This document shows positions 7,350-32,523 of a stretch of 32,869 bases of DNA, in pieces. The stretch is taken from assembly GCA_027492655.1 (NCBI GenBank), contig JAPUEF010000350.1:1-32869 (forward strand), written 5' to 3'. A program made the translations under genes and the position numbers. Under the pieces are notes generated by a model. It made no database searches. It was not told the origin of the DNA and saw only the letters and a program-made list of their open reading frames with translations. Numbering within the stretch: position 1 is the first letter of the stretch; every line of letters begins with the position of its first letter. This stretch comes from Alphaproteobacteria bacterium. GTDB taxonomy: Bacteria; Pseudomonadota; Alphaproteobacteria; Micropepsales; Micropepsaceae.

Positions 7350-7967
7350 TCAGCTTGCCGCTGTTCCTGCGACGGCGGCGTTCAGTTTGTTGACGGTTTC
7401 GAGGATCAGGGCGGTGACGGCCTTGCGGTCCATCTCCATGTCGCGGCGGAAAACCTGCCAGACATAGACATCCGTGACGGCGATGAGCGACCTGAGATGG
7501 CGCTCTCGGGCCGCGCCCTTGAGCCGATCCAGCACGTCGCGAAAGGCGAGTTCGGTCTGCTCGCGGTGCTTGGCGCGGCCATGGGCGAGGACGGGCGTGA
7601 GCGCGGAATGGCGCAGCTCCTGCGCCAGGAGGCGTACGACCAGATCGCCGGTCATTTCGTAATCGTCGATCAGCGCGGCGATGGCGGTGGCGTGCGACGC
7701 CGAGCCGGCGCGGCGGCGCGCCTCGATCTGGGGGCCGACGGTCATGTTGAAGGCGGCGATGAGGCCGTCCTTGCCCCCGAAACGCCTGATGACGGTCTGC
7801 ACCGTGACGCCGGCAGCCGCCGCGATTTCGGCCAAGGTGATGTCGTCCAGCCATTTCGCGCGGGCGAGCGCCATGAAGGCGTCGAGGATGCGGCGGTAGG
7901 TCTCCTCCGCCGCCTCGGCCCTGGCGCCCTGTTCATAGGCGCGTGTCGATGGGGTCTTCGATTTCAT
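7350..7967 (-). CDS. TetR-family transcriptional regulator
   Basis: A 205-aa repressor. The N-terminal DNA-binding domain reads RRILDAFMALARAKWLDDITLAEIAAAAGVTVQTVIRRFGGKDGLIAAF (about residues 25-70), a standard TetR helix-turn-helix followed by the usual G-x-K-x-x-L-x-x-x-F. The rest is an alpha-helical ligand-binding domain with no recognisable ligand signature. ATG 7967 (MKSKTPST) is preferred because an earlier start would place the protein inside the operator palindrome. It is the first gene of an operon with the glycosyltransferase. Since the operator overlaps its own start codon, negative autoregulation is very likely. Confidence 0.92.
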   Translation of the reverse strand: MKSKTPSTRAYEQGARAEAAEETYRRILDAFMALARAKWLDDITLAEIAAAAGVTVQTVIRRFGGKDGLIAAFNMTVGPQIEARRRAGSASHATAIAALIDDYEMTGDLVVRLLAQELRHSALTPVLAHGRAKHREQTELAFRDVLDRLKGAARERHLRSLIAVTDVYVWQVFRRDMEMDRKAVTALILETVNKLNAAVAGTAAS

Positions 7968-7989
7968 GTTATTACGACTAACATGAAAT
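7961..7989. promoter_or_regulatory. TetR operator: 11-bp perfect inverted repeat over the start codon
   Basis: ATTTCATGTTA (7961-7971) and TAACATGAAAT (7979-7989) form perfect 11-bp arms around the 7-bp spacer TTACGAC. The tetR start codon (7965-7967 on the plus strand) lies inside the left arm. The AT-rich palindrome stands out from GC-rich surroundings and has the size expected for binding by a TetR dimer or a pair of dimers. Confidence 0.8.
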
Positions 7990-8079
7990 AAAGGCGCGCG
8001 CAAGCGACCGCCCACCGCGCTGCGACGATCGTCACAGCGGGCGTGCGGTCAGCCGGATTTCAGGGCAGTCGTGGCGGGA

Positions 8080-8979
8080 TCAGTGGCCTGCGGGCTTTTT
8101 CTCGCCGGCGGTGATGGCGAGCGCCACCCGGTCGACGGCGACGGGGCAGTTGTAATGCTCCGAGCGGGCGCAGTTCGGATTATAGAGATAGTTGAAGTCG
8201 ATGGTGACGGTCCTGGGCAGCGCGCCCTTGGCCACTTCGACATCGGTGTAGCGGCCGACGCCGTAGGTTTCCTTGCCCGTGGTGTCGTCCATTATGAAGG
8301 CGGCGAGGCTGTCGATTTCCTCCACCTTGTCGGTGCCGGCATACATCGGCAGGCGCGTCTCGACGCCCTTCAGCGTGAAGACGGCGTCGCCCGCGTAATA
8401 GAACTGCTTGTACCAGCCGCGCGAGGTCTGGAAGACCTTGGGCTCAAGCCTGGCGGCGGGTTCGAATTTCGCCTCGACCACGAACGAGGGATCGTAAGGG
8501 TAATAGTCGAGGCCGGTGAAGGCGGCGGCATCGGGATTGTCGTCGTTATAGACGGCGACGCGCATGCCGTCCTTGCCCGGCTCGATCTGCGCGACGCCGG
8601 CGCTGACGCGGATCTTCTCGCTGAGGGCATGTGGCGAGACGCCTTCGGCCACGAGATCCACGTCGCCGGCGAGGTCAGCGAATTTGGCGGACTTCAGGTC
8701 TTCGCCCGCCGTGACGCTGGGCACGCGGTTGGCCGGAGCGCTGAGCGACCAGTGATAGGCGCCGCCCGCCTGGGTCAGCCATGCGGTTTCGCCGGGCTTC
8801 AGATAGATCGCATCGTCGATCTTGAGGATGGCGGTCGGACGCCTGGCATAGGCCTCGTTGGCGTCCTCGATTTCCGACCTCCACTTGGTTTCGGCATTGG
8901 TCGGCATGGGCGGGGAGTCGGCGAACGCCGCCGCCGCGAGGGCGGTGGCGACGAGGGCGGCGGCGGTCAGGCGGCGCAT
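8080..8979 (-). CDS. Exported DUF1684-family protein
   Basis: A 299-aa protein with a clear N-terminal signal peptide (MRRLTAAALVATALAAAAFA, cleavage probably after residue 20), so it acts in the periplasm. The DUF1684 hallmark is at the C-terminus: YGVGRYTDVE, then TIDFNYLYNPNCARSEHYNCPV and a closing LAITAGEK. Two cysteines in that block are conserved in the family as I know it. DUF1684 proteins have no established biochemical role. The start at 8979 has GGAG upstream (GGAGTTTCCG). It is a single gene, divergent from the small exported protein at 9207 across 227 bp in which I see no further gene. Confidence 0.82.
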   Translation of the reverse strand: MRRLTAAALVATALAAAAFADSPPMPTNAETKWRSEIEDANEAYARRPTAILKIDDAIYLKPGETAWLTQAGGAYHWSLSAPANRVPSVTAGEDLKSAKFADLAGDVDLVAEGVSPHALSEKIRVSAGVAQIEPGKDGMRVAVYNDDNPDAAAFTGLDYYPYDPSFVVEAKFEPAARLEPKVFQTSRGWYKQFYYAGDAVFTLKGVETRLPMYAGTDKVEEIDSLAAFIMDDTTGKETYGVGRYTDVEVAKGALPRTVTIDFNYLYNPNCARSEHYNCPVAVDRVALAITAGEKKPAGH

Positions 8980-9206
8980 CGGAAACTCCGGTTGGATTTG
9001 GCGCTATTGTGACATGGGTGGCGGCTTCAGGCCATTGGCCGGGCTTTAATCCACACTTCAGCTCTGCACCTCGCGCGTCCAGACGAGAGACGGCTGGTCG
9101 CGGGATCGGCTTGCCTGCGGCCATCTTTGCGCCATCTGCGGCTTGCAATCTGCCGGGCCGGCGGACGAGGATTTGGGGCGCAGCCGGCGCCGGAGGGTAA
9201 GATCGG

Positions 9207-24653: not shown

Positions 24654-24746
24654 CTAGAATATTTTTGCATATCCGGTCAGCTTCCAGACGAGCATAAACA
24701 GGAAGATGGCAACAGCGGCGAAGAGAAAGATCGTCTCTTTCTTCAT
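24654..24746 (-). CDS. 30-aa single-span membrane peptide coupled to nhaA
   Basis: ATG 24746 overlaps the nhaA stop as ATGA, and the frame runs 30 codons to TAG 24654. The peptide begins [20 protein letters not shown] and ends [10 protein letters not shown]: charged start, about 20 hydrophobic residues, then W-K, a classic one-helix membrane peptide. No homologue is recalled. Translational coupling and a clean membrane-helix composition argue that it is a real gene and possibly a small subunit or regulator of the antiporter, comparable in layout to KdpF or CydX in their operons. Confidence 0.62.
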
Positions 24747-25993
24747 AATGCTGCACGCTTCGGCTTGAGCAGCAGGATCGCGCCGACAATGGCCGAGGCA
24801 ATTGATCCAATCAGAACGCCCAATTTTGTTTCGTCTTGTAAGACGGGACTACTCTCAAACGCGAGAAGGCCGATGAATAGGCTCATGGTGAAGCCAACCC
24901 CGCACAGAACGGAAACGCCATAGAGCTGCCGCCAGCTTGCGTGTGCGGGCAGCTCCGCAAATCCCATGCGGATGACGGCGGCAGCGAAAGCGAACACACC
25001 AATTTGCTTTCCCACAAACAGGCCGAGGGCCACGCCGAGAGGTACAGGGTCGGCAAGCTGGGTGAGCGACATTCCGGAGAAGGACACGCCCGCATTGGCA
25101 AAGCCGAACACAGGCACGATCAGGAACGTCACCCACGGAGCAATGCCGTGTTCGAGGATGTGCAACGGCGAATGTGCGTCGTCTGGCTTCGCGGGGCTGG
25201 CTCGCAGCGGAATACAAAATGCGAGCGCGACGCCTGCAAGAGTGGCGTGGACGCCTGATTGTAAAACGAAGAACCAAAGTGCGCCCCCTAAAGTCAGATA
25301 GGGCCACAGGCTCATGATGCGCAGACGGTTCAAGGCGATGAGTGCAACCAGCACAATTGCGGCCGCGCCAAGCGCGAGGGCATTGAGCGAGGCGGTGTAG
25401 AAAAGCGCGATGATGATCACCGCGCCCAGATCATCGATAATCGCAAGCGCGGTCAGAAAGACGCGCAGCGTCATCGGGACGCGCGGCCCCAGCAGCGACA
25501 TGACGCCAAGCGCGAAGGCAATGTCTGTGGCGGCCGGAATCGCCCAGCCTTTAGGCTGGCCGCCCTCGCCCATGTTGAATGCGAGGAATACGAAAGCGGG
25601 AACCGCCATTCCACCGAGCGCGGCAAAGCCGGGCAAAATCCGGCGAGGCCATGTTGAGAGCTGGCCGTCTAAAACCTCGCGTTTGATTTCGAGGCCGACC
25701 ATCAGGAAGAACACGGCCATCAAGCCGTCGTTGATCCAATGCAGGATCGACAGGCCGCCGACATAGAGATGCAGGCTCTCAAAATACGCCGCGCTGATGG
25801 GGGAATTCGCAATGACGAGCGCGAGCGCTGCGGCGACCATGAGGACAATTCCGCCCGAGGCAGAGTTGTCCAAGAAAGCGCGGATCAGAGAAACAGGGCG
25901 TTGCTGGTTCGGCTGCACAGGGATGACCCGCCTTCCAAAAAAGGTTTCGACATCTCCGTGGATTTTGGGGTGCACCCAAGGCGCACGCAGCAC
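24743..25993 (-). CDS. nhaA: Na+/H+ antiporter NhaA
   Basis: Exchanges cytoplasmic Na+ (or Li+) for protons across the inner membrane. From GTG 25993 the protein is 416 aa; E. coli NhaA is 388. The ion-binding aspartate pair is in [21 protein letters not shown] and the helix IV aspartate in [38 protein letters not shown] marks the first membrane segment and [14 protein letters not shown] a late one. The first 25 residues (to GRRVIP) are not NhaA-like; an internal GTG at 25918 would give a more normal start and make the upstream part an untranslated leader. A 30-aa membrane peptide is coupled downstream. It is carried on the island, so it may add salt or pH tolerance. Confidence 0.92.
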
Positions 25994-26457: not shown

Positions 26458-27642
26458 TTAAGTGCTGGAAGTTTTTTTCAAGGACGCCGACGCAGGATCG
26501 TATGCGTATCCCGTAATCGATCCGTCCTTGATCCGCTCGACGGCTTCATCGATCGCCTGGAGCGGCACCAAAAACCATTCGCGCGGTTTCACAGGCTGGC
26601 CGAACCGGTCGGGGATGGTGAGATCAAGCTGCACCGCCCCGAACAGCCTGTGAAATATCTTCTCAAGGCGCGTCCGGTTGATGTTGAAGAGCTTGTAAGT
26701 CGCGACAACCTCAACATCCGACAGAAGATATGTCGCATCATGCGCCGCATTCGCGATCCGCGCCTCCACCGCGCCGCCCGTCACCCCGATCTTGTGGATG
26801 ATGCTCCGGTGCTCGGCAACAGTGGGGTGCTGCGAATGACTTCGCAGAACGTAGATCGTCCCGCTCGCCAGATCGTCGGCTTCTTGCGCGCCGCCAAAGA
26901 GCGGCCCCGCCGATGGGTCCGTGATGCGCCGTCCCGCCTCGTCCTTATGAAGCGATCGCTGGAGCGAGCGCATCAGCAAGTTGCTCTCGGTTCCATTCGA
27001 AAACACCACGCGCAGGCGTGCATCGGTTCGCCCTTGCGCATTCGAATACACCTCACCCATCTCGGCGACGTAAGCCGTCTGACCGCCGACAATGAACCAG
27101 CTTCCAGGACGGATTTCGGCTTTGAGTTCGAACGGGCGGGTTTGCCGCACGCCGGTATCGATCTCGCGTTGCACCTGATCGAAGAGCGGCTTGAACCGCG
27201 CAAAATCAGGGCATGGCGTGCGGTTGGCGATCTCTTCGGCGGCGCGGCGTTCCTCGCGGCTGGAGACGTGCTTTAGAACCGTGATGTCGGTTTCCGTGAC
27301 ATCGTCAACACCAAGCTCTGCGAGCAATGCGTCGTCTTCTAGTTCCTCGCCCTCGCTTGCAGGAGATGCGCCGGTCAGAAGGCCGTGCACGTCCAGCTCG
27401 GCGAGCAGAGTTTGCGCCTCGGGAAGCTTGCGGATTTGATCGAGCCGCACGGCATAGAGCCGTTCGAAGATATCCCGTCCCTCGCCATGGAGCGGCGCGC
27501 GGCCATGCTCTTCGTGAAAGCGAAGAATATCTTCGAAGCCCGCAATGATCCGCTCTTCGCGCGGCGTGTGAGAGCGTGCCTTTTGCGGCTCGATCGTCGC
27601 GCCGAGTTCGGCCAGCAATTCGTCGTCTGTTAAATCAACCAT
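26458..27642 (-). CDS. GIY-YIG nuclease-family protein of the methyltransferase-helicase operon
   Basis: 394 aa from ATG 27642, overlapping the helicase stop by 8 bp. The C-terminal GIY-YIG domain (about residues 257-370, T5orf172/MUG113-like) shows GTIYVLRS as GIY and HKIGVTGG as YIG, then VEARIANA with the conserved Arg and RTRLEKIFHRLF with the metal-binding Glu; PREWFLVPL follows. The N-terminal half has a short repeated D-D-x-L-L-A-E-L-G element (residues 6-14 and 103-111, plus a degenerate copy at 76-83) and an HGRAP block (46-50). It is probably the nuclease or a DNA-nicking partner of the operon; whether catalysis is intact cannot be judged by eye alone. Confidence 0.82.
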   Translation of the reverse strand: MVDLTDDELLAELGATIEPQKARSHTPREERIIAGFEDILRFHEEHGRAPLHGEGRDIFERLYAVRLDQIRKLPEAQTLLAELDVHGLLTGASPASEGEELEDDALLAELGVDDVTETDITVLKHVSSREERRAAEEIANRTPCPDFARFKPLFDQVQREIDTGVRQTRPFELKAEIRPGSWFIVGGQTAYVAEMGEVYSNAQGRTDARLRVVFSNGTESNLLMRSLQRSLHKDEAGRRITDPSAGPLFGGAQEADDLASGTIYVLRSHSQHPTVAEHRSIIHKIGVTGGAVEARIANAAHDATYLLSDVEVVATYKLFNINRTRLEKIFHRLFGAVQLDLTIPDRFGQPVKPREWFLVPLQAIDEAVERIKDGSITGYAYDPASASLKKTSST

Positions 27643-29722
27643 TGGCGGTCTTCGCTGCGCGGTAACGCGCAAGTGCCGCCACGCCTTCGGCCAGTTTCTT
27701 CTCCCAGGCATCTTGGGAGGTGATGTCCGGCGCACGGCCACGCTCTTGCTTGAAACGAAGAGCCCGAACGGCAAGCTCGCGCGCTTCCTCGTAAGGAATG
27801 CTCACACGCTTGGCCGCGATCGCCGCCTGCACCTGGCGCAGGGTCTTTTCATCCATGGCCTTGCCGAGGACGGCATAGGCCGCATCGAACGGATTGATCT
27901 TGTCGATCATGTCGATATCCAGATCGCGCACATCCATGGCGATCTGGCGCACCCCATCCAGCAAAGCCGTGTTACCGCGCTGATCTCCGGTGCCGGTATC
28001 GATGCCGCTCGCAAGTTCCTTGGCGCGCTGGGTGAGGTTCAATGCCGCGATCGCATGCTGCCGGATCGCTTCCTGATCCGTTTCGCTCAAATCGGGATAA
28101 CGCTCGCGCACAATCTTGCCCATGCGCGCCTGCGTTAGCTCTTCGGGCAGAGTATTTTCACGATCAAAGAGACCGCGCTCCAGTGCCGTTTTATCTTGCA
28201 CGAACGCCGTGATGACCTCGTTCAAATCCTCTTTGCAGATGCGGGTCGCTTCCGGCGTCTCCGGCGTCACCAGCCCCTTGATCTCAAAATGGAATTGGCC
28301 GGTCTCTTCGTTGAAGCCGACATTTGTCTTGCCTTCTTCGTAGCCCTTCTCGCCGTAATCGAAGCCTGGCTTCGCGCCGGAATCTTTGGGTGTAAATTCA
28401 AAGCGCGGCGCAAGCACCTGCTCCATGAGAAGGCTGGCAGCGATCGCTTTGAGCGTATCGTTGATCGCATCGACCACCAGAGCTTCCGCCGCATCCGGCT
28501 CTGCAATCAAATTGGTGAAGCGTGCCCGCTCCTTGCCTGGCGCATCGCGGGTCGCGCGGCCAATGATCTGGATGACTTCCGTCAGGCTGGAGCGATAGCC
28601 GACCGTGAGCGCGTGCTCGCACCAAATCCAGTCGAAGCCTTCTTTGGCCATGCCCAGCGCGATGATGATATCGACATGATCGCGGTTGTTCTTCTGGGAC
28701 GGGTCTTTGAGCGAGGCCGCAACCTTGTCGCGCTTGGCCGGATCATCATCAACAAGGTCTGCAACCTTGATGACGCGCCCGCCAGCGATTTCGATCATGT
28801 GGAAGCCGGTCGCGGGGTCGATGCCCTTCCAGGTGCCAAGAGATTCCATGATCTCATCGACTTCCTTGTGCTTGTCCTTGGTGCTCTCTTTCGAGTTCAC
28901 ATTCGGAATGTGCACGATCGTTTTGATCGAAGGATCGAGCACCTTCATGATCGCGTCGAGATATCGCCCCGTATAGAAGAAGTAACCGATATCGAGCGAC
29001 TTCAGATGTTCATAGCCATTCAGCTGCTCATAGTAGGTATAAGTGACGGTGACGAACTTCGCTTCGTCGGATGGTGCGAGAACTGCCTCCGCATCGCCTC
29101 TGAAGTAAGATCCCGTCATCGCGACCAGATGCACCTTGTCGCGGACGATGAACTGGCCGAGCTGCGCGCCAAGCCGGTTGTCAGGATTGCTGCTGACATG
29201 GTGGAACTCGTCCACCGCAATCAGGCGGTTGTCGAACGCCTCAACGCCCAGCTCATCGACGGCAAAGCGGAACGTCGCATGGGTGCAGACTAAAACCTCA
29301 TCGTCGCTCGCCAGAAACTCGCCGACCGCCTTGACCTTTGATTTCGCGACCTTCGGCTCGTCAATGCCAGGCGCATTGCACAGATTCCATTGCGGCTTCA
29401 CTGTCCAATCATAGGGGAAGCCGTTCGCGCTCAGCTTTTCATCGGCAAAGCTGCCGCCGATCGAACGCTCCGGCACGACGATGATCGCTTGTTTGATGCC
29501 CTGATTGCGCAGCTTATCCAGCGCGATGAACATCAAAGCGCGGGACTTGCCTGATGCCGGTGGCGATTTGATGAGCAGATATTGCTCGCCGCGCCGCGCA
29601 TAGGCCCGCTCTTGCATCACTCGCATGCCCATGGCGTTTGCCTTGGTCGATGCGCCGGTGCGTGCTGTCGTGATGGACACGGACGGGATCGTCCGCTCGT
29701 TCGTCGGATTGTCGGTCGTCAT
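27635..29722 (-). CDS. SF2 DEAD/DEAH-type helicase of the methyltransferase operon
   Basis: 695 aa. The Walker A motif is SPPASGKS (residues 53-60), motif II is D-E-F-H at 171-174 (LIAVDEFHHVSS), motif III is MTGSY near 207, and motif VI is QIIGRATRD near 385. This architecture matches helicases of type I/III restriction systems, but no PD-(D/E)xK endonuclease block is visible at the C-terminus. The C-terminus instead ends in ALRFKQERGRAPDITSQDAWEKKLAEG, resembling a stretch in the downstream GIY-YIG protein. ATG 29722 overlaps the original methyltransferase stop (ATGA), and its own stop overlaps the GIY-YIG start. It probably translocates on or unwinds DNA for the system. Confidence 0.88.
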   Translation of the reverse strand: MTTDNPTNERTIPSVSITTARTGASTKANAMGMRVMQERAYARRGEQYLLIKSPPASGKSRALMFIALDKLRNQGIKQAIIVVPERSIGGSFADEKLSANGFPYDWTVKPQWNLCNAPGIDEPKVAKSKVKAVGEFLASDDEVLVCTHATFRFAVDELGVEAFDNRLIAVDEFHHVSSNPDNRLGAQLGQFIVRDKVHLVAMTGSYFRGDAEAVLAPSDEAKFVTVTYTYYEQLNGYEHLKSLDIGYFFYTGRYLDAIMKVLDPSIKTIVHIPNVNSKESTKDKHKEVDEIMESLGTWKGIDPATGFHMIEIAGGRVIKVADLVDDDPAKRDKVAASLKDPSQKNNRDHVDIIIALGMAKEGFDWIWCEHALTVGYRSSLTEVIQIIGRATRDAPGKERARFTNLIAEPDAAEALVVDAINDTLKAIAASLLMEQVLAPRFEFTPKDSGAKPGFDYGEKGYEEGKTNVGFNEETGQFHFEIKGLVTPETPEATRICKEDLNEVITAFVQDKTALERGLFDRENTLPEELTQARMGKIVRERYPDLSETDQEAIRQHAIAALNLTQRAKELASGIDTGTGDQRGNTALLDGVRQIAMDVRDLDIDMIDKINPFDAAYAVLGKAMDEKTLRQVQAAIAAKRVSIPYEEARELAVRALRFKQERGRAPDITSQDAWEKKLAEGVAALARYRAAKTANG

Positions 29723-29967
29723 GCGGCCTTCCTCCCTTTCTTTTTTGTGGGTTTGGGCTGATTGGCCGTCATCTTGGTGTAGAGATCGAAGAGCTTCTCC
29801 AGCCGTTCAGTGTCGTTCCTGAATCGCCGCCCGATGTAGATGCGCTCCAGCACCTCGTCGTTTTCGTCATGCGCGCGGCGCAGATCGTCCGGCATCTCTT
29901 CGGGGTAGTATAGATCGGCGATCGTCTTCGGGAAAATCGCCACGAGACCGAGCAAGAAATTGACATC
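29719..29967 (-). pseudogene. Detached C-terminal 82 codons of the methyltransferase
   Basis: In the same frame as the methyltransferase and directly after its TGA stop, 82 codons stay open to the TGA at 29719. The translation, DVNFLLGLVAIFPKTIADLYYP followed by DLRRAHDENDEVLERIYIGRRF and NDTERLEKLFDLYTKMTA, is the recognisable C-terminal end of MmeI-like methyltransferases (I-A-D-L-Y, A-H-x-x-N-D-E-V-L-E, F-x-N-D-T-E-R-L-E-x-L-F-x-L-Y). The natural stop overlaps the helicase start. Without readthrough or reinitiation it would not be made. Confidence 0.8.
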
Positions 29968-32523
29968 TCACCGCGGGAGATCCGCATTGGAATGGTCGGT
30001 GAGCTTGGGAAGAGGAAATGTGTTCCATCCGAGGGTGTTGGAATACCGGTACCGCGTCTCCAACCTGCCGCACACCGCCGCAATCCAAGCAAGATGGATT
30101 TTCGATCCGATGATAGACAGTGTCCACAGGGGCGCATCGTATAAAGCGAATGCTGAGTTGCTGACTATCGACCTCGGCGGTAGTAGACCGACAGGAAGAT
30201 AGCCCCTTCGTTCCGAACTAACGGCTGGAACAATTAGACTCCAACGCGTTCCAACGCCCTGGATCTGTCTGAACTTGTGAGGGTAACGAGCGGACGGACG
30301 GGTTTCAGCAGCTTTGCTTTCACTACGGAAAGCTGCAACGCGTTCGAAGCGCAGTCGCAGAGCTTCATGGCTTCGCGCGAGTTCTACATCCTCGTCCTCG
30401 ACCCAGATGCAATGTCGCTCCAAACCCTTGATGTACTCGGCTCCACCAAAATAGGGCCGCATGAACCTACGAGAACTTGGATCAGCTCTCAGGACTTCAT
30501 CCCGCTCGTGGCGAGTTAGAAGCAATCCACCACCATCGGTAGGTTTGTTCCCCCACAGCATTGCAGCTCGGCCATCTGGGGCTTGTGACGCAGTCGTGAC
30601 TATTACGTCAGTCGTTGGTGATAGGTACGCGTTAATTTCAGATACGGTTTTCTCTTGGAAAACCCCATCCTTGTCCTCGTAGAAAAGCTTGCGTCGTCGC
30701 GTGTGGTCATTACTGATCGCTACGATCGCAACGGTAACGCCAGCGTTGTGGCTCGCTAAGTTGGCCCACTTAAACGAGACGTGTGCAAATGTGATTTGAA
30801 AGCCGCTGCTAGCGATCAGCGGCCAAAGTATCGGCACTTGCTCGCCCTGACAGACCGAATTGGTGGTGACAAAGGCTGCAGTTACCTTTGAGCTTCGCCC
30901 AAAATCTGCAGCCTTCATGAACCACGCGCTGACGTAGTCCAGAGACTTCCACGCTTTTGTGCGTGTATCAAAAATGGAGGCCAGTTCTGCTTTTTGCTCT
31001 TGGGATTGCCACGTAAACCCGAGATACGGGGGGTTCCCGCAGATGTAGGTTTCGCCTCCCTCATTCTCGAAATCGATCTGCGCTTGATCGAGTGGCGAGT
31101 TGAAGAGATCGTCCGCGTGTAATTTCACGCCGGTGCCAGTAGGAGGACAAACCGATAGCCAATCGAGACCGAGCGCGTTGCCGCAGGTAATCCAGTTATC
31201 CGCATTGAGTGGTAAGAACTCGGCTAGTGCTTCTTTCTGTCCCCGATACAGAACGTCGCATTGATACTCTGCGATGATCAAAGCAAGCCTCGCGATTTCC
31301 GCAGGAAAATTGCGAAGCTCAATTCCCCGAAAACTCGTGAGCGGTATGTCAGATCGACGCTCTGACTCATCTCGCCGTTTGTTGATCTCAGCTTCGATGG
31401 CCCGCATTTCTTTGTAGGCGATGACGAGGAAGTTGCCCGAACCGCAGGCCGGATCGAACACACGTATTTTCGACATGCGCTTGCGGAGATTCAGCAGCGC
31501 ACGTCCGTTGTCGCCAGCTGCTTCCAGCTGTTCTCGTAGATCGTCGAGGAAGAGTGGATTTAGAACTTTCAGGATGTTCGGCACGCTCGTGTAGTGCATG
31601 CCGAGCGATCCACGCTCTTCGTCTTCGGCGACGGCCTGGATCATCGATCCGAAAATGTCGGGGTTGATCTGCTGCCAGTCGAGCTCGCCAGCGCGCAATA
31701 GGTATGAGCGCGCCATGCGGCTGAACTTCGGGCAATCGATCTCGCCTGAGAACAGGTGGCCGTTCACGTAAGGAAACTTGTCCGCCCAGCCCTTGATGTT
31801 CGCCGCTTTGCGGTAGCGATCATCCGGCGTGCCGTTGTGTGTGGTCGGCGTGTCCATCGCGCGGAACAGCTCTGACAGCACTTCGTGCGTGTTGCCTGAT
31901 TGGCCATCGCTCATTGTCTCGATGGTGCGGGTGAAGATGTTGTTCTGAAATATCCCCGTATCTTCGGCGAAGAAGCAGAAGATCAGCCGCGCCATGAAGT
32001 GGTTGAGCATGGGCCTCTTCTCGGCAGATGCCCAATCGGGATTGTCCTTGAGAAGCTCGACATAGAGTTTGTTCAGGCGTCCCGTCGCCTTCACGTCGAT
32101 CGGGTTGTTCTTGATCTCCTTGACCGTGGTGATGCCAGCCAGCGGCAGGAAGAACCCGAAATGCTCCGCAAATTTCTCGAACGGGGTTGAGAGCGGCTCG
32201 CCGCTGATCAGGTCTTCGGCTTCAAGTGTTTTGCCATCCGTCGCCAGGATGAATTTCGCCTTGGCGGCGGTCGTCTTCGGGCTTTGGCGCAGAGCGGCGA
32301 GCGTCTCGTTGACCTTGCCTTCATCGCAGGTGGCGATGTGAATGTTGTTTCGCTGAAGAACGCCTTCTGCGATGTCCGACGAATTCGACGCGCCCGAGCG
32401 CAGCTTCCTGATCGTCGTGTCCTTGTTGTCGAACGCTTTCAAAAAGGCATAAGGGAACTCGGCGCGGTCAAATTCCTGCGCCGCCAGTTCCGATGCTGCT
32501 TCCTCGATTTCAACTGCGTTCAT
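29968..32523 (-). CDS. MmeI-like class I SAM-dependent DNA methyltransferase, cut short by in-frame TGA
   Basis: 851 aa as read; restoring the frame past the TGA gives about 934, the usual size for this family. It methylates adenine in DNA using S-adenosylmethionine. Motif I is VFDPACGSGNFLVIAY (about residue 355) and the catalytic N-P-P-Y is in YICGNPPYLGF (about residue 497). The helical spacer stretch LIFCFFAEDTGIF, then FGSMIQAVAEDEERGSLGMHYTS and ILKVLNPLFLDDL, are family markers; the target-recognition domain follows from about residue 650. The N-terminus (GASNSSDIAEGVLQRNNIHI) occupies the place of the MmeI nuclease, but no convincing D-x(n)-E-x-K set is visible. ATG 32523 heads the operon. 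Confidence 0.88.
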   Translation of the reverse strand: MNAVEIEEAASELAAQEFDRAEFPYAFLKAFDNKDTTIRKLRSGASNSSDIAEGVLQRNNIHIATCDEGKVNETLAALRQSPKTTAAKAKFILATDGKTLEAEDLISGEPLSTPFEKFAEHFGFFLPLAGITTVKEIKNNPIDVKATGRLNKLYVELLKDNPDWASAEKRPMLNHFMARLIFCFFAEDTGIFQNNIFTRTIETMSDGQSGNTHEVLSELFRAMDTPTTHNGTPDDRYRKAANIKGWADKFPYVNGHLFSGEIDCPKFSRMARSYLLRAGELDWQQINPDIFGSMIQAVAEDEERGSLGMHYTSVPNILKVLNPLFLDDLREQLEAAGDNGRALLNLRKRMSKIRVFDPACGSGNFLVIAYKEMRAIEAEINKRRDESERRSDIPLTSFRGIELRNFPAEIARLALIIAEYQCDVLYRGQKEALAEFLPLNADNWITCGNALGLDWLSVCPPTGTGVKLHADDLFNSPLDQAQIDFENEGGETYICGNPPYLGFTWQSQEQKAELASIFDTRTKAWKSLDYVSAWFMKAADFGRSSKVTAAFVTTNSVCQGEQVPILWPLIASSGFQITFAHVSFKWANLASHNAGVTVAIVAISNDHTRRRKLFYEDKDGVFQEKTVSEINAYLSPTTDVIVTTASQAPDGRAAMLWGNKPTDGGGLLLTRHERDEVLRADPSSRRFMRPYFGGAEYIKGLERHCIWVEDEDVELARSHEALRLRFERVAAFRSESKAAETRPSARYPHKFRQIQGVGTRWSLIVPAVSSERRGYLPVGLLPPRSIVSNSAFALYDAPLWTLSIIGSKIHLAWIAAVCGRLETRYRYSNTLGWNTFPLPKLTDHSNADLPR

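What the first reader, a model, noticed from the sequence alone, without database searches (positions are those of the whole stretch)
27420..27770. Shared GRAP block at the end of the helicase and the start of the GIY-YIG protein
The helicase C-terminus has L-R-F-K-Q-E-R-G-R-A-P-D followed by D-A-W-E-K-K-L; the GIY-YIG N-terminus has L-R-F-H-E-E-H-G-R-A-P-L followed by D-I-F-E-R-L. The spacing is nearly the same. The GIY-YIG protein also repeats D-D-x-L-L-A-E-L-G. These could be docking or DNA-binding modules that hold the complex together, or traces of an ancient duplication or fission.
Basis: seen in the sequence. Interest (0 to 1): 0.5.

Follow-up and report, generated by a model that had tools for sequence, protein, structure and literature searches.

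The report
Shared hairpin docks helicase to nuclease
Two neighbouring bacterial genes, a DNA helicase and a DNA-cutting enzyme of a putative phage-defence system, share a small hairpin module, and family-wide co-evolution suggests that the helicase's hairpin grips two short tags on the cutter, holding the two enzymes together.

Summary
Helicase residues 644-694 and GIY-YIG residues 27-80 carry the same helix-GRxP-helix module. In the window alone the likeness is weak: full-length against full-length, 39 of 300 shuffles score as well. Family profiles make it significant. P and E are invariant in 46 aligned blocks, and AlphaFold gives the same helix-loop-helix in both. In 100 genomes the block profile matched strongly 14 times: twice in each of 7 genomes, on this gene pair.

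The genes belong to the known DnmA-YeeB-YeeC locus.

The helicase hairpin does not co-vary with the nuclease's hairpin. It co-varies with the nuclease's two DDxLLAELG tags. A second helicase hairpin type ('EGRY', 17 of 102 pairs) needs at least 8 changes on the helicase-core tree, and the tags follow it. Of 204 nuclease columns, the 8 with likelihood ratio above 15 lie in or beside the tags. In reverse, only helicase 640-695 exceeds 20, among 161 columns tested in helicase and methyltransferase.

Best reading: a plug-and-socket that recruits the nuclease to the translocase. Binding itself is untested. No fused helicase-nuclease ORF was seen.

The parts
27635..29722 (-). YeeB-like SF2 helicase, 695 aa
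   Evidence: DEAD/ResIII/Helicase_C below their cut-offs in Pfam; VIA-align Z about 15 to RIG-I-like and other SF2 helicases over residues about 30-500; many residues of the helicase core invariant in 61 aligned homologues
27641..27793 (-). helicase C-terminal GRxP hairpin (residues 644-694): helix 644-661, loop 662-671, helix 672-694; proposed socket
   Evidence: AlphaFold secondary structure, ten-residue means pLDDT 80-90 over 641-690 and 64 at the very end; P665 and E674 invariant in 61; columns 640, 648, 655, 681, 683-685, 691 exceed likelihood ratio 20 with tag 1 or tag 2
26458..27642 (-). YeeC-like GIY-YIG/T5orf172 protein, 394 aa, ATG start
   Evidence: PF10544 43.8 bits and PF13455 47.7 bits, above cut-offs
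27403..27564 (-). GIY-YIG N-terminal GRxP hairpin (residues 27-80): helices 27-46, 58-72, 74-80
   Evidence: AlphaFold pLDDT means 93-97 over residues 31-80; P50 and E60 invariant in 76 aligned homologues; profile homology to the helicase hairpin
27601..27627 (-). tag 1, DDELLAELG (GIY residues 6-14); proposed plug
   Evidence: short helix 6-12 in the model, pLDDT means 71 and 61; co-evolves with the helicase hairpin
27310..27336 (-). tag 2, DDALLAELG (GIY residues 103-111); proposed second plug
   Evidence: helix 103-109 in a low-confidence linker, pLDDT means 55 and 45; co-evolves with the helicase hairpin
26530..26862 (-). T5orf172/GIY-YIG nuclease domain (GIY residues 261-371)
   Evidence: Pfam match; Y264, K284, G286, R295, E355 invariant in 76; their reading as active-site residues is recalled from GIY-YIG knowledge
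27635..27642 (-). 8-nt overlap ATGGTTGA of helicase stop and GIY-YIG start
   Evidence: an 8-nt overlap is the commonest arrangement, 80 of 115 distinct helicase-GIY placements
29968..32523 (-). MmeI/DnmA-like adenine methyltransferase (C-terminal domain in another frame)
   Evidence: PF20473 E 1.4e-114 and MmeI TRD; MmeI 5hr4 E 1.4e-127
29719..29955 (-). MmeI_C domain ORF, 78 aa, split off from the methyltransferase
   Evidence: PF20467 E 9e-14; in relatives 140 of 144 ORFs matching this piece also match the methyltransferase

Best explanation
This is a docking device inside a DnmA-YeeB-YeeC type methyltransferase-helicase-nuclease system. The helicase ends in a two-helix hairpin closed by a conserved GRxP turn. 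The face formed by the first helix and the far end of the second helix is a socket. The GIY-YIG nuclease carries two copies of a short acidic-leucine helix (DDxLLAELG), one on either side of its own, homologous hairpin; one or both plug into the helicase socket. This tethers the nuclease to the ATP-driven translocase, so that cutting happens only where the helicase has been loaded, presumably on DNA that the MmeI-like methyltransferase finds unmodified. Two tags per nuclease would let one nuclease join two helicases. The nuclease's own hairpin came from the same ancestor and probably has a related binding role. Shown: homology, fold prediction, pairing in genomes, co-evolution. Inferred: physical binding, stoichiometry, recruitment, and the role of the nuclease's own hairpin.
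For: Homology of the blocks and matching predicted helix boundaries. The block profile hits strongly only this pair in 100 genomes: 14 matches in 7 genomes, next best E 0.04 (the profile includes blocks from four of those genomes, the window's among them). The GIY gene lies directly downstream in 122 of 124 helicase loci with enough sequence (L003 added by reading). Two docking types exist in 102 near-clade pairs. The EGRY helicase type has non-LG tag 1 in 17 of 17 (16 by regex, L066 misread) and non-LG tag 2 in 17 of 17. Other helicases have LG tag 1 in 84 of 85 and LG tag 2 in 80 of 85. The type needs at least 8, 11 and 9 changes on helicase-core, GIY-core and joint-core trees. Pagel likelihood ratios for helicase type against tag 1 / tag 2: 49/44, 54/50, 43/38 on the three trees. 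Scan of all 204 eligible GIY columns: the 8 above 15 are 5, 6, 10, 14, 15, 16, 103, 111, in or within two residues of the tags, and equivalent positions recur (6/103, 14/111); block 0 of 27, columns 121-394 0 of 147. Reverse scan: helicase 640-695 has 6 of 31 columns above 20 for either tag; helicase 560-639 0 of 32; helicase 1-559 0 of 49; methyltransferase 0 of 49. Mutual information: hairpin x tag 1 region 75 pairs above z 4 against 3.9 expected, x tag 2 region 24 against 4.7, x GIY block 10 against 15.4. The twin tags change together between clades: mean own-protein match 35 (near) and 28 (far), cross-clade 18-19, shuffled 18.6.
Against: No binding data and no complex model. The helicase hairpin and tag 1 are neighbours on the DNA, so a short recombining segment could carry both; only tag 2, beyond the GIY block, escapes that objection. 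Three Bacillota loci (L065, L073, L075), viral contig L119 and L041 have a non-EGRY helicase and LG tag 1 but a non-LG tag 2. L049 has a non-EGRY helicase with a changed tag 1. In the 21-pair far clade the signal is absent (Neff 20), and in 11 of 23 far-clade proteins the two tags match each other only weakly (score 25 or less). Charge covariation between the hairpins failed (contrast correlation -0.07). Tag helices have modest model confidence.
Confidence: 0.65

Rival explanations
1. Linked exchange: a short junction cassette (helicase tail plus nuclease N-terminus) is swapped by recombination, so its parts look co-evolved without touching each other.
For: The helicase hairpin and tag 1 are contiguous on the DNA; type-specific identity excess is largest in hel 620-695 and GIY 1-30; the type maps poorly on both core trees.
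Against: Tag 2 co-switches although the GIY block between shows little or no excess (0.01-0.04 over residues 21-70, 0.08-0.09 at 61-90); helicase 560-639, at a comparable distance from the junction, has 0 of 32 columns above 20.
Confidence: 0.2
2. The two homologous hairpins pair with each other (block-to-block docking) as a heterodimer.
For: Homology; opposite mean charge (+1.8 and -1.2 over 132 pairs); the charge sign is inverted in L173 and L178.
Against: Phylogenetic contrasts of charge -0.07, within the null of 989 window pairs; block x block mutual information below expectation; block columns 0 of 27 above 15.
Confidence: 0.15
3. Both hairpins are DNA-binding elements of the kind of HNH-associated or helicase-associated repeats.
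For: A few members weakly match PF18780 and PF03457 (2 of 46 each); the host proteins act on DNA (inferred from their families).
Against: Neither match was reported for the window's helicase block (table A) or for either full window protein; the GIY hairpin is acidic on average; the co-evolving columns are matched to tags in a partner protein.
Confidence: 0.1
4. The similarity is convergence on a common helix-GRxP turn with no shared ancestry.
For: PMBR (20 of 46 members, best E 2.1e-5), E1_4HB (6 of 46) and others show partial likeness; the window proteins alone are not significant.
Against: 48-column profile alignment, reciprocal HMM hits, the same two-helix frame, and pairing in genomes.
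Confidence: 0.1

Closest known systems
DnmA-YeeB-YeeC locus (Bacillus subtilis; homologues in Vibrio crassostreae), PMC9973331 and PMC7261158 (passages read)
   Same: MmeI-like methyltransferase, then SF2 helicase, then T5orf172/GIY-YIG protein in the same order; described there as a putative Type I-like or antiphage system, inactive under the conditions tested in B. subtilis
   Different: The passages read mention no shared hairpin, twin tags or helicase-nuclease docking. I could not obtain B. subtilis YeeB/YeeC; [quoted passage not shown] crassostreae, so whether they keep hairpin and tags is open
CglI (R.CglI + H.CglI, R2H2), PMC5737866 (passages read)
   Same: Separate DEAD-family ATPase and nuclease subunits that must assemble; works-like comparison only
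   Different: PLD nuclease with B3 domain, not GIY-YIG; no relation of the docking parts was tested
C-terminal/N-terminal docking domains of modular synthases (recalled)
   Same: Short modules at the end of one subunit and the start of the next, with cognate types
   Different: Unrelated proteins; no sequence relation tested
PF09373 PMBR, PF18780 HNH_repeat, PF03457 HA
   Same: Partial profile likeness; the PMBR match covers helix 1 and the GRxP turn
   Different: Helicase hairpin scores 22.9 bits against PMBR's cut-off of 24.9 and only its first half is matched; HA and HNH_repeat match 2 of 46 members each

Membership tests
DnmA-YeeB-YeeC locus | MmeI-family methyltransferase upstream | tested here: met
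   PF20473 1.4e-114, MmeI_TRD, MmeI_N; MmeI 5hr4; upstream in 95 of 112 homologous loci with enough sequence
DnmA-YeeB-YeeC locus | Methyltransferase lacks the N-terminal endonuclease motif of MmeI | tested here: inconclusive
   phmmer alignment to MmeI starts only at window residue 90 (MmeI 109), so the N-terminal part does not align; catalytic residues not tested directly
DnmA-YeeB-YeeC locus | SF2 helicase first downstream, T5orf172/GIY-YIG second downstream | tested here: met
   gene order in the window (the split-off MmeI_C ORF lies between), and GIY next to the helicase in 122 of 124 loci
DnmA-YeeB-YeeC locus | Active restriction or phage defence | not testable with these tools
   Experimental; PMC9973331 reports none in B. 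subtilis and cites some in V. crassostreae (passages)
GIY-YIG / T5orf172 nuclease | Domain above the family cut-off with conserved active-site residues | tested here: met
   PF10544 43.8 bits (cut-off 20), PF13455 47.7 (22.3); Y264, K284, G286, R295, E355 invariant in 76, their catalytic role recalled; activity not tested
PF09373 pseudomurein-binding repeat | Score above curated cut-off over the repeat | tested here: not met
   22.7 and 22.9 bits against 24.9 for the window's helicase; no match listed for the GIY protein; scores of other family members were not shown
PF03457 HA / PF18780 HNH_repeat | Score above curated cut-off | tested here: inconclusive
   No match reported for the window's helicase block (table A) or for the two full proteins at E 1; 2 of 46 members match each weakly (best E 0.097 and 0.0019), bit scores of members not shown
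CglI-type R2H2 complex | PLD/B3 nuclease subunit with Z1-helicase | tested here: not met
   Pfam gives T5orf172/MUG113 for the nuclease, and no PLD, B3 or Z1 domain was reported at E 1

The most novel reading that the evidence does not exclude
The hairpin-tag pair is a plug-and-socket with at least two mutually exclusive types (LG and EGRY), repeatedly exchanged as a cognate set. The types keep coexisting systems from cross-assembling. The nuclease's own hairpin, descended from the same ancestor as the socket, may bind a tag of a neighbouring nuclease to build a larger filament or ring.
Probability: 0.3. Interest if true: 0.65.

Novelty: new variant of a known kind. Interest (0 to 1): 0.5.

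Why it matters
In the papers I could open, YeeB- and YeeC-type proteins are linked by gene order and predicted function only. The result gives a specific, mutable interface for assembling this methyltransferase-helicase-nuclease locus, predicts which residues carry it, and offers a way to ask whether B. subtilis YeeB/YeeC are inactive because the link is broken. It also shows a short repeated motif and a shared C-/N-terminal block being explained together by co-evolution.

Tried and rejected
Block-to-block electrostatic pairing: the raw charge correlation of -0.30 (123 pairs) shrank to -0.07 with phylogenetic contrasts. Block x block mutual information: rank 291 of 2205 window pairs. A third copy of the block in the window's methyltransferase: none found; the LG tag pattern in methyltransferases or helicases: 0 of 90 and 0 of 124. 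Three weak genome hits of the block profile were read (by my reading a methylmalonyl-CoA mutase-like protein, a GGDEF-type protein and a junk frame) and taken as chance; four other weak hits (G010, G044, G068, G617) were not read. Fusion genes: none seen. PDB: no sequence match for helicase (E 0.01) or GIY protein (E 1), and five weak matches to the block, best E 0.12, none over the whole block. Foldseek on the GIY model gave nothing at E 0.001 or below. The structure searches did not test the hairpin alone. A search of 299 genomes of the phylum of L065 found the nuclease only in the starting genome.

Corrected on the way. residue labels are wrong (mafft --keeplength dropped window residues) and were replaced; its far-clade result is used only for absence of signal. 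regex miscalled L021, L053, L056 and L058 as non-LG tag 1 (they read LGVDLA, LGQDLA or LGIDLA), and miscalled L066 as LG. One search counted gaps as differences and used trimmed N-termini; one search repeats it untrimmed with gaps missing and is the one relied on. One search finished 161 of the 203 columns chosen from 631 eligible. One search timed out before its simulated null, so significance rests on the other columns as the empirical null. In the mutual-information runs N-termini were trimmed and gaps counted as a state. Rows dropped before the pair counts: 132 distinct block pairs became 124 with both proteins full length and 123 after removing one duplicate, of which 102 are near clade.

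Not in print, as far as searched: searches listed no paper whose title or abstract start describes the shared hairpin or docking. Those were listings; only PMC9973331, PMC7261158 and PMC5737866 were opened, passages only. The Morgan 2009 MmeI-family paper was not held and the V. crassostreae study was seen only as cited.
Full report
The window encodes, on the - strand, an MmeI/DnmA-like methyltransferase (29968-32523, its C-terminal domain in another frame at 29719-29955), an SF2 helicase (27635-29722, 695 aa) and a GIY-YIG/T5orf172 protein (26458-27642, 394 aa). The nuclease's likely ATG overlaps the helicase stop by eight bases, the commonest arrangement among relatives (80 of 115 distinct placements). 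The same three-gene order is described as dnmA-yeeB-yeeC in Bacillus subtilis, where it was concluded to be a non-functional relic, with phage-resistance effects cited for Vibrio crassostreae homologues (PMC9973331, passages; PMC7261158, passages).

Diverged and viral-contig loci were added. In 124 distinct helicase loci with more than 1,300 bases downstream, the nuclease gene is adjacent in 122 (121 flagged, L003 added by reading). The exceptions are L039, where the nuclease frame stops after about 27 codons, with tag 1 present and the hairpin cut off, and L166, where the helicase itself is cut short. A methyltransferase is upstream in 95 of 112. No ORF matched both helicase and nuclease.

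The shared block is real. In the window alone it would not pass: full-length shuffles reach the score 39 times in 300, though the picked-out blocks do so in only 12 of 20,000. With family profiles the best alignment between the whole helicase (82 sequences) and the whole nuclease (105) is this block: 48 columns, score 40.7, next 17.3, P 3.4e-4, probability 38%. The maximum of 200 local column shuffles is 30.2. Block HMMs find each other's proteins at 2.7e-5 and 8.7e-6 in 14,704 frames of at least 60 aa. Reversed frames give nothing below 0.01, and the only other frame below 0.01 is a shifted piece of a helicase, L186. Most single sequences stay above 0.01 (6 of 187 and 8 of 215 domain rows below it). 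In a joint alignment of 46 blocks one P and one E are invariant. They are also invariant in 61 aligned helicases (P665, E674) and 76 aligned nucleases (P50, E60).

Structure: AlphaFold2 gives helix 644-661, loop 662-671, helix 672-694 at the helicase C-terminus and helix 27-46, loop 47-57, helices 58-72 and 74-80 in the nuclease. The block profile was searched in 100 genomes of the phylum. Fourteen strong matches fall two each in seven genomes, on the helicase and the nuclease; the four others have E 0.04-0.1. Four of the seven genomes (the window's and those of L092, L096 and L098) had given blocks to the profile; three had not. Six more genomes, chosen because they carry the system, gave twelve strong and three weak matches. 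Of the seven weak matches in the two calls I read three, and they look like chance.

The repeated DDxLLAELG also generalises. In the diverged clade the nuclease tends to carry LDDIFxxDxLGLL-like tags at the same two places. Mean own-protein tag similarity is 35 (82 near) and 28 (23 far), while cross-clade similarity equals the shuffled level (18-19 against 18.6); 11 of the 23 far proteins score 25 or less. On average, then, the two tags change together.

Which surfaces belong together? Pairwise mutual information over 102 near-clade pairs singles out the helicase hairpin with the tag 1 region (75 column pairs above z 4, 3.9 expected) and the tag 2 region (24, 4.7 expected), not with the nuclease's hairpin (10, 15.4 expected). 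Reading the sequences shows two types. LG: tag 1 ..LLxxLGV, tag 2 LLAELG[VI], helicase mostly EGVA.... EGRY: tag 1 LDELxxELxDFAxP-like, tag 2 AEL without LG, helicase EGAAAFxRFKxEGRY-like. The EGRY helicase occurs in 17 of 102 pairs, each time with non-LG tags (tag 1 of L066 by reading). The other 85 have LG tag 1 in 84 (not L049) and LG tag 2 in 80 (not L041, L065, L073, L075, L119). The type needs 8, 11 and 9 parsimony changes on trees of the helicase core, nuclease core and both; shuffled labels need about 16.

Pagel's discrete test on these trees gives likelihood ratios of 49/44, 54/50 and 43/38 for helicase type against tag 1 / tag 2 (printed before the time limit). Over all 204 eligible nuclease columns, the eight above 15 are 5, 6, 10, 14, 15, 16, 103 and 111. 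The block has 0 of 27 (maximum 13.0) and columns 121-394 have 0 of 147 (maximum 12.9); column 17, beside tag 1, has 14.1. Positions 6/103 and 14/111 are equivalent in the two tags, an internal replicate. In reverse, with tag 1 or tag 2 as the trait, helicase 640-695 has 6 of 31 columns above 20; helicase 560-639 has 0 of 32, 1-559 0 of 49, and the methyltransferase 0 of 49 (161 of 203 chosen columns finished, of 631 eligible). The leading helicase columns (640, 648, 655 before and on helix 1; 681, 683-685, 691 on helix 2) lie away from the GRxP turn, which suggests a structural turn and a variable binding face (inference).

Limits. The helicase hairpin and tag 1 are contiguous on the DNA, so a swapped junction segment could link them. 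Tag 2 lies beyond the nuclease hairpin, which shows little excess, and is the main argument against that. The far clade (21 pairs) is too small to test and shows no signal. The idea that the two hairpins bind each other through opposite charge (+1.8 and -1.2 on average) failed under phylogenetic contrasts. Binding, stoichiometry and function were not tested. The system itself is known; the docking reading is new as far as the listed paper searches show.

Noticed in passing
window:29719-30000 (-): The methyltransferase is split: its MmeI_C domain lies in another frame (78-aa ORF), whereas in relatives 140 of 144 ORFs matching that piece also match the methyltransferase; either a real frameshift or an assembly error.
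   Followed up: partly
helicase residue 418 (window:28469-28471) with GIY residues 127 and 129 (window:27256-27264): Second strongest inter-protein covariation in the near clade (D418 with R129 z 13.0 and S127 z 12.2); a possible second contact, not pursued.
   Followed up: no
L173:7789-7923 and 7950-9122; L178: Two viral-contig loci with inverted hairpin charges (helicase -3, GIY +3 and +4) relative to the family.
   Followed up: partly
L065, L073, L075, L119: Mixed docking type: non-EGRY helicase and LG tag 1, but non-LG tag 2.
   Followed up: partly
GIY protein, middle region between tag 2 and the nuclease domain: Foldseek's best matches to the GIY model are eIF5A/EF-P, with a short good match to EF-P domain I (5wxk_B, 49 columns, rmsd 1.5, TMt 0.62, E 0.023); weak, perhaps an SH3-like domain (the listing gives no residue range, so the place is my guess).
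   Followed up: no
L039:2160-2513: Nuclease frame stops about 27 codons in, keeping tag 1 and losing the hairpin, while the helicase keeps an intact hairpin (the helicase tail was printed).
   Followed up: partly
window:21809-23419 (-): Large ORF that reads like a serine recombinase, near the system; also an NhaA-like antiporter ORF at 24743-25993 (my reading of the translations, not searched).
   Followed up: no
G000:C247:2480-3289 (-): A second MmeI_Mtase match (118 bits) in the window's genome, 1148-aa frame.
   Followed up: no
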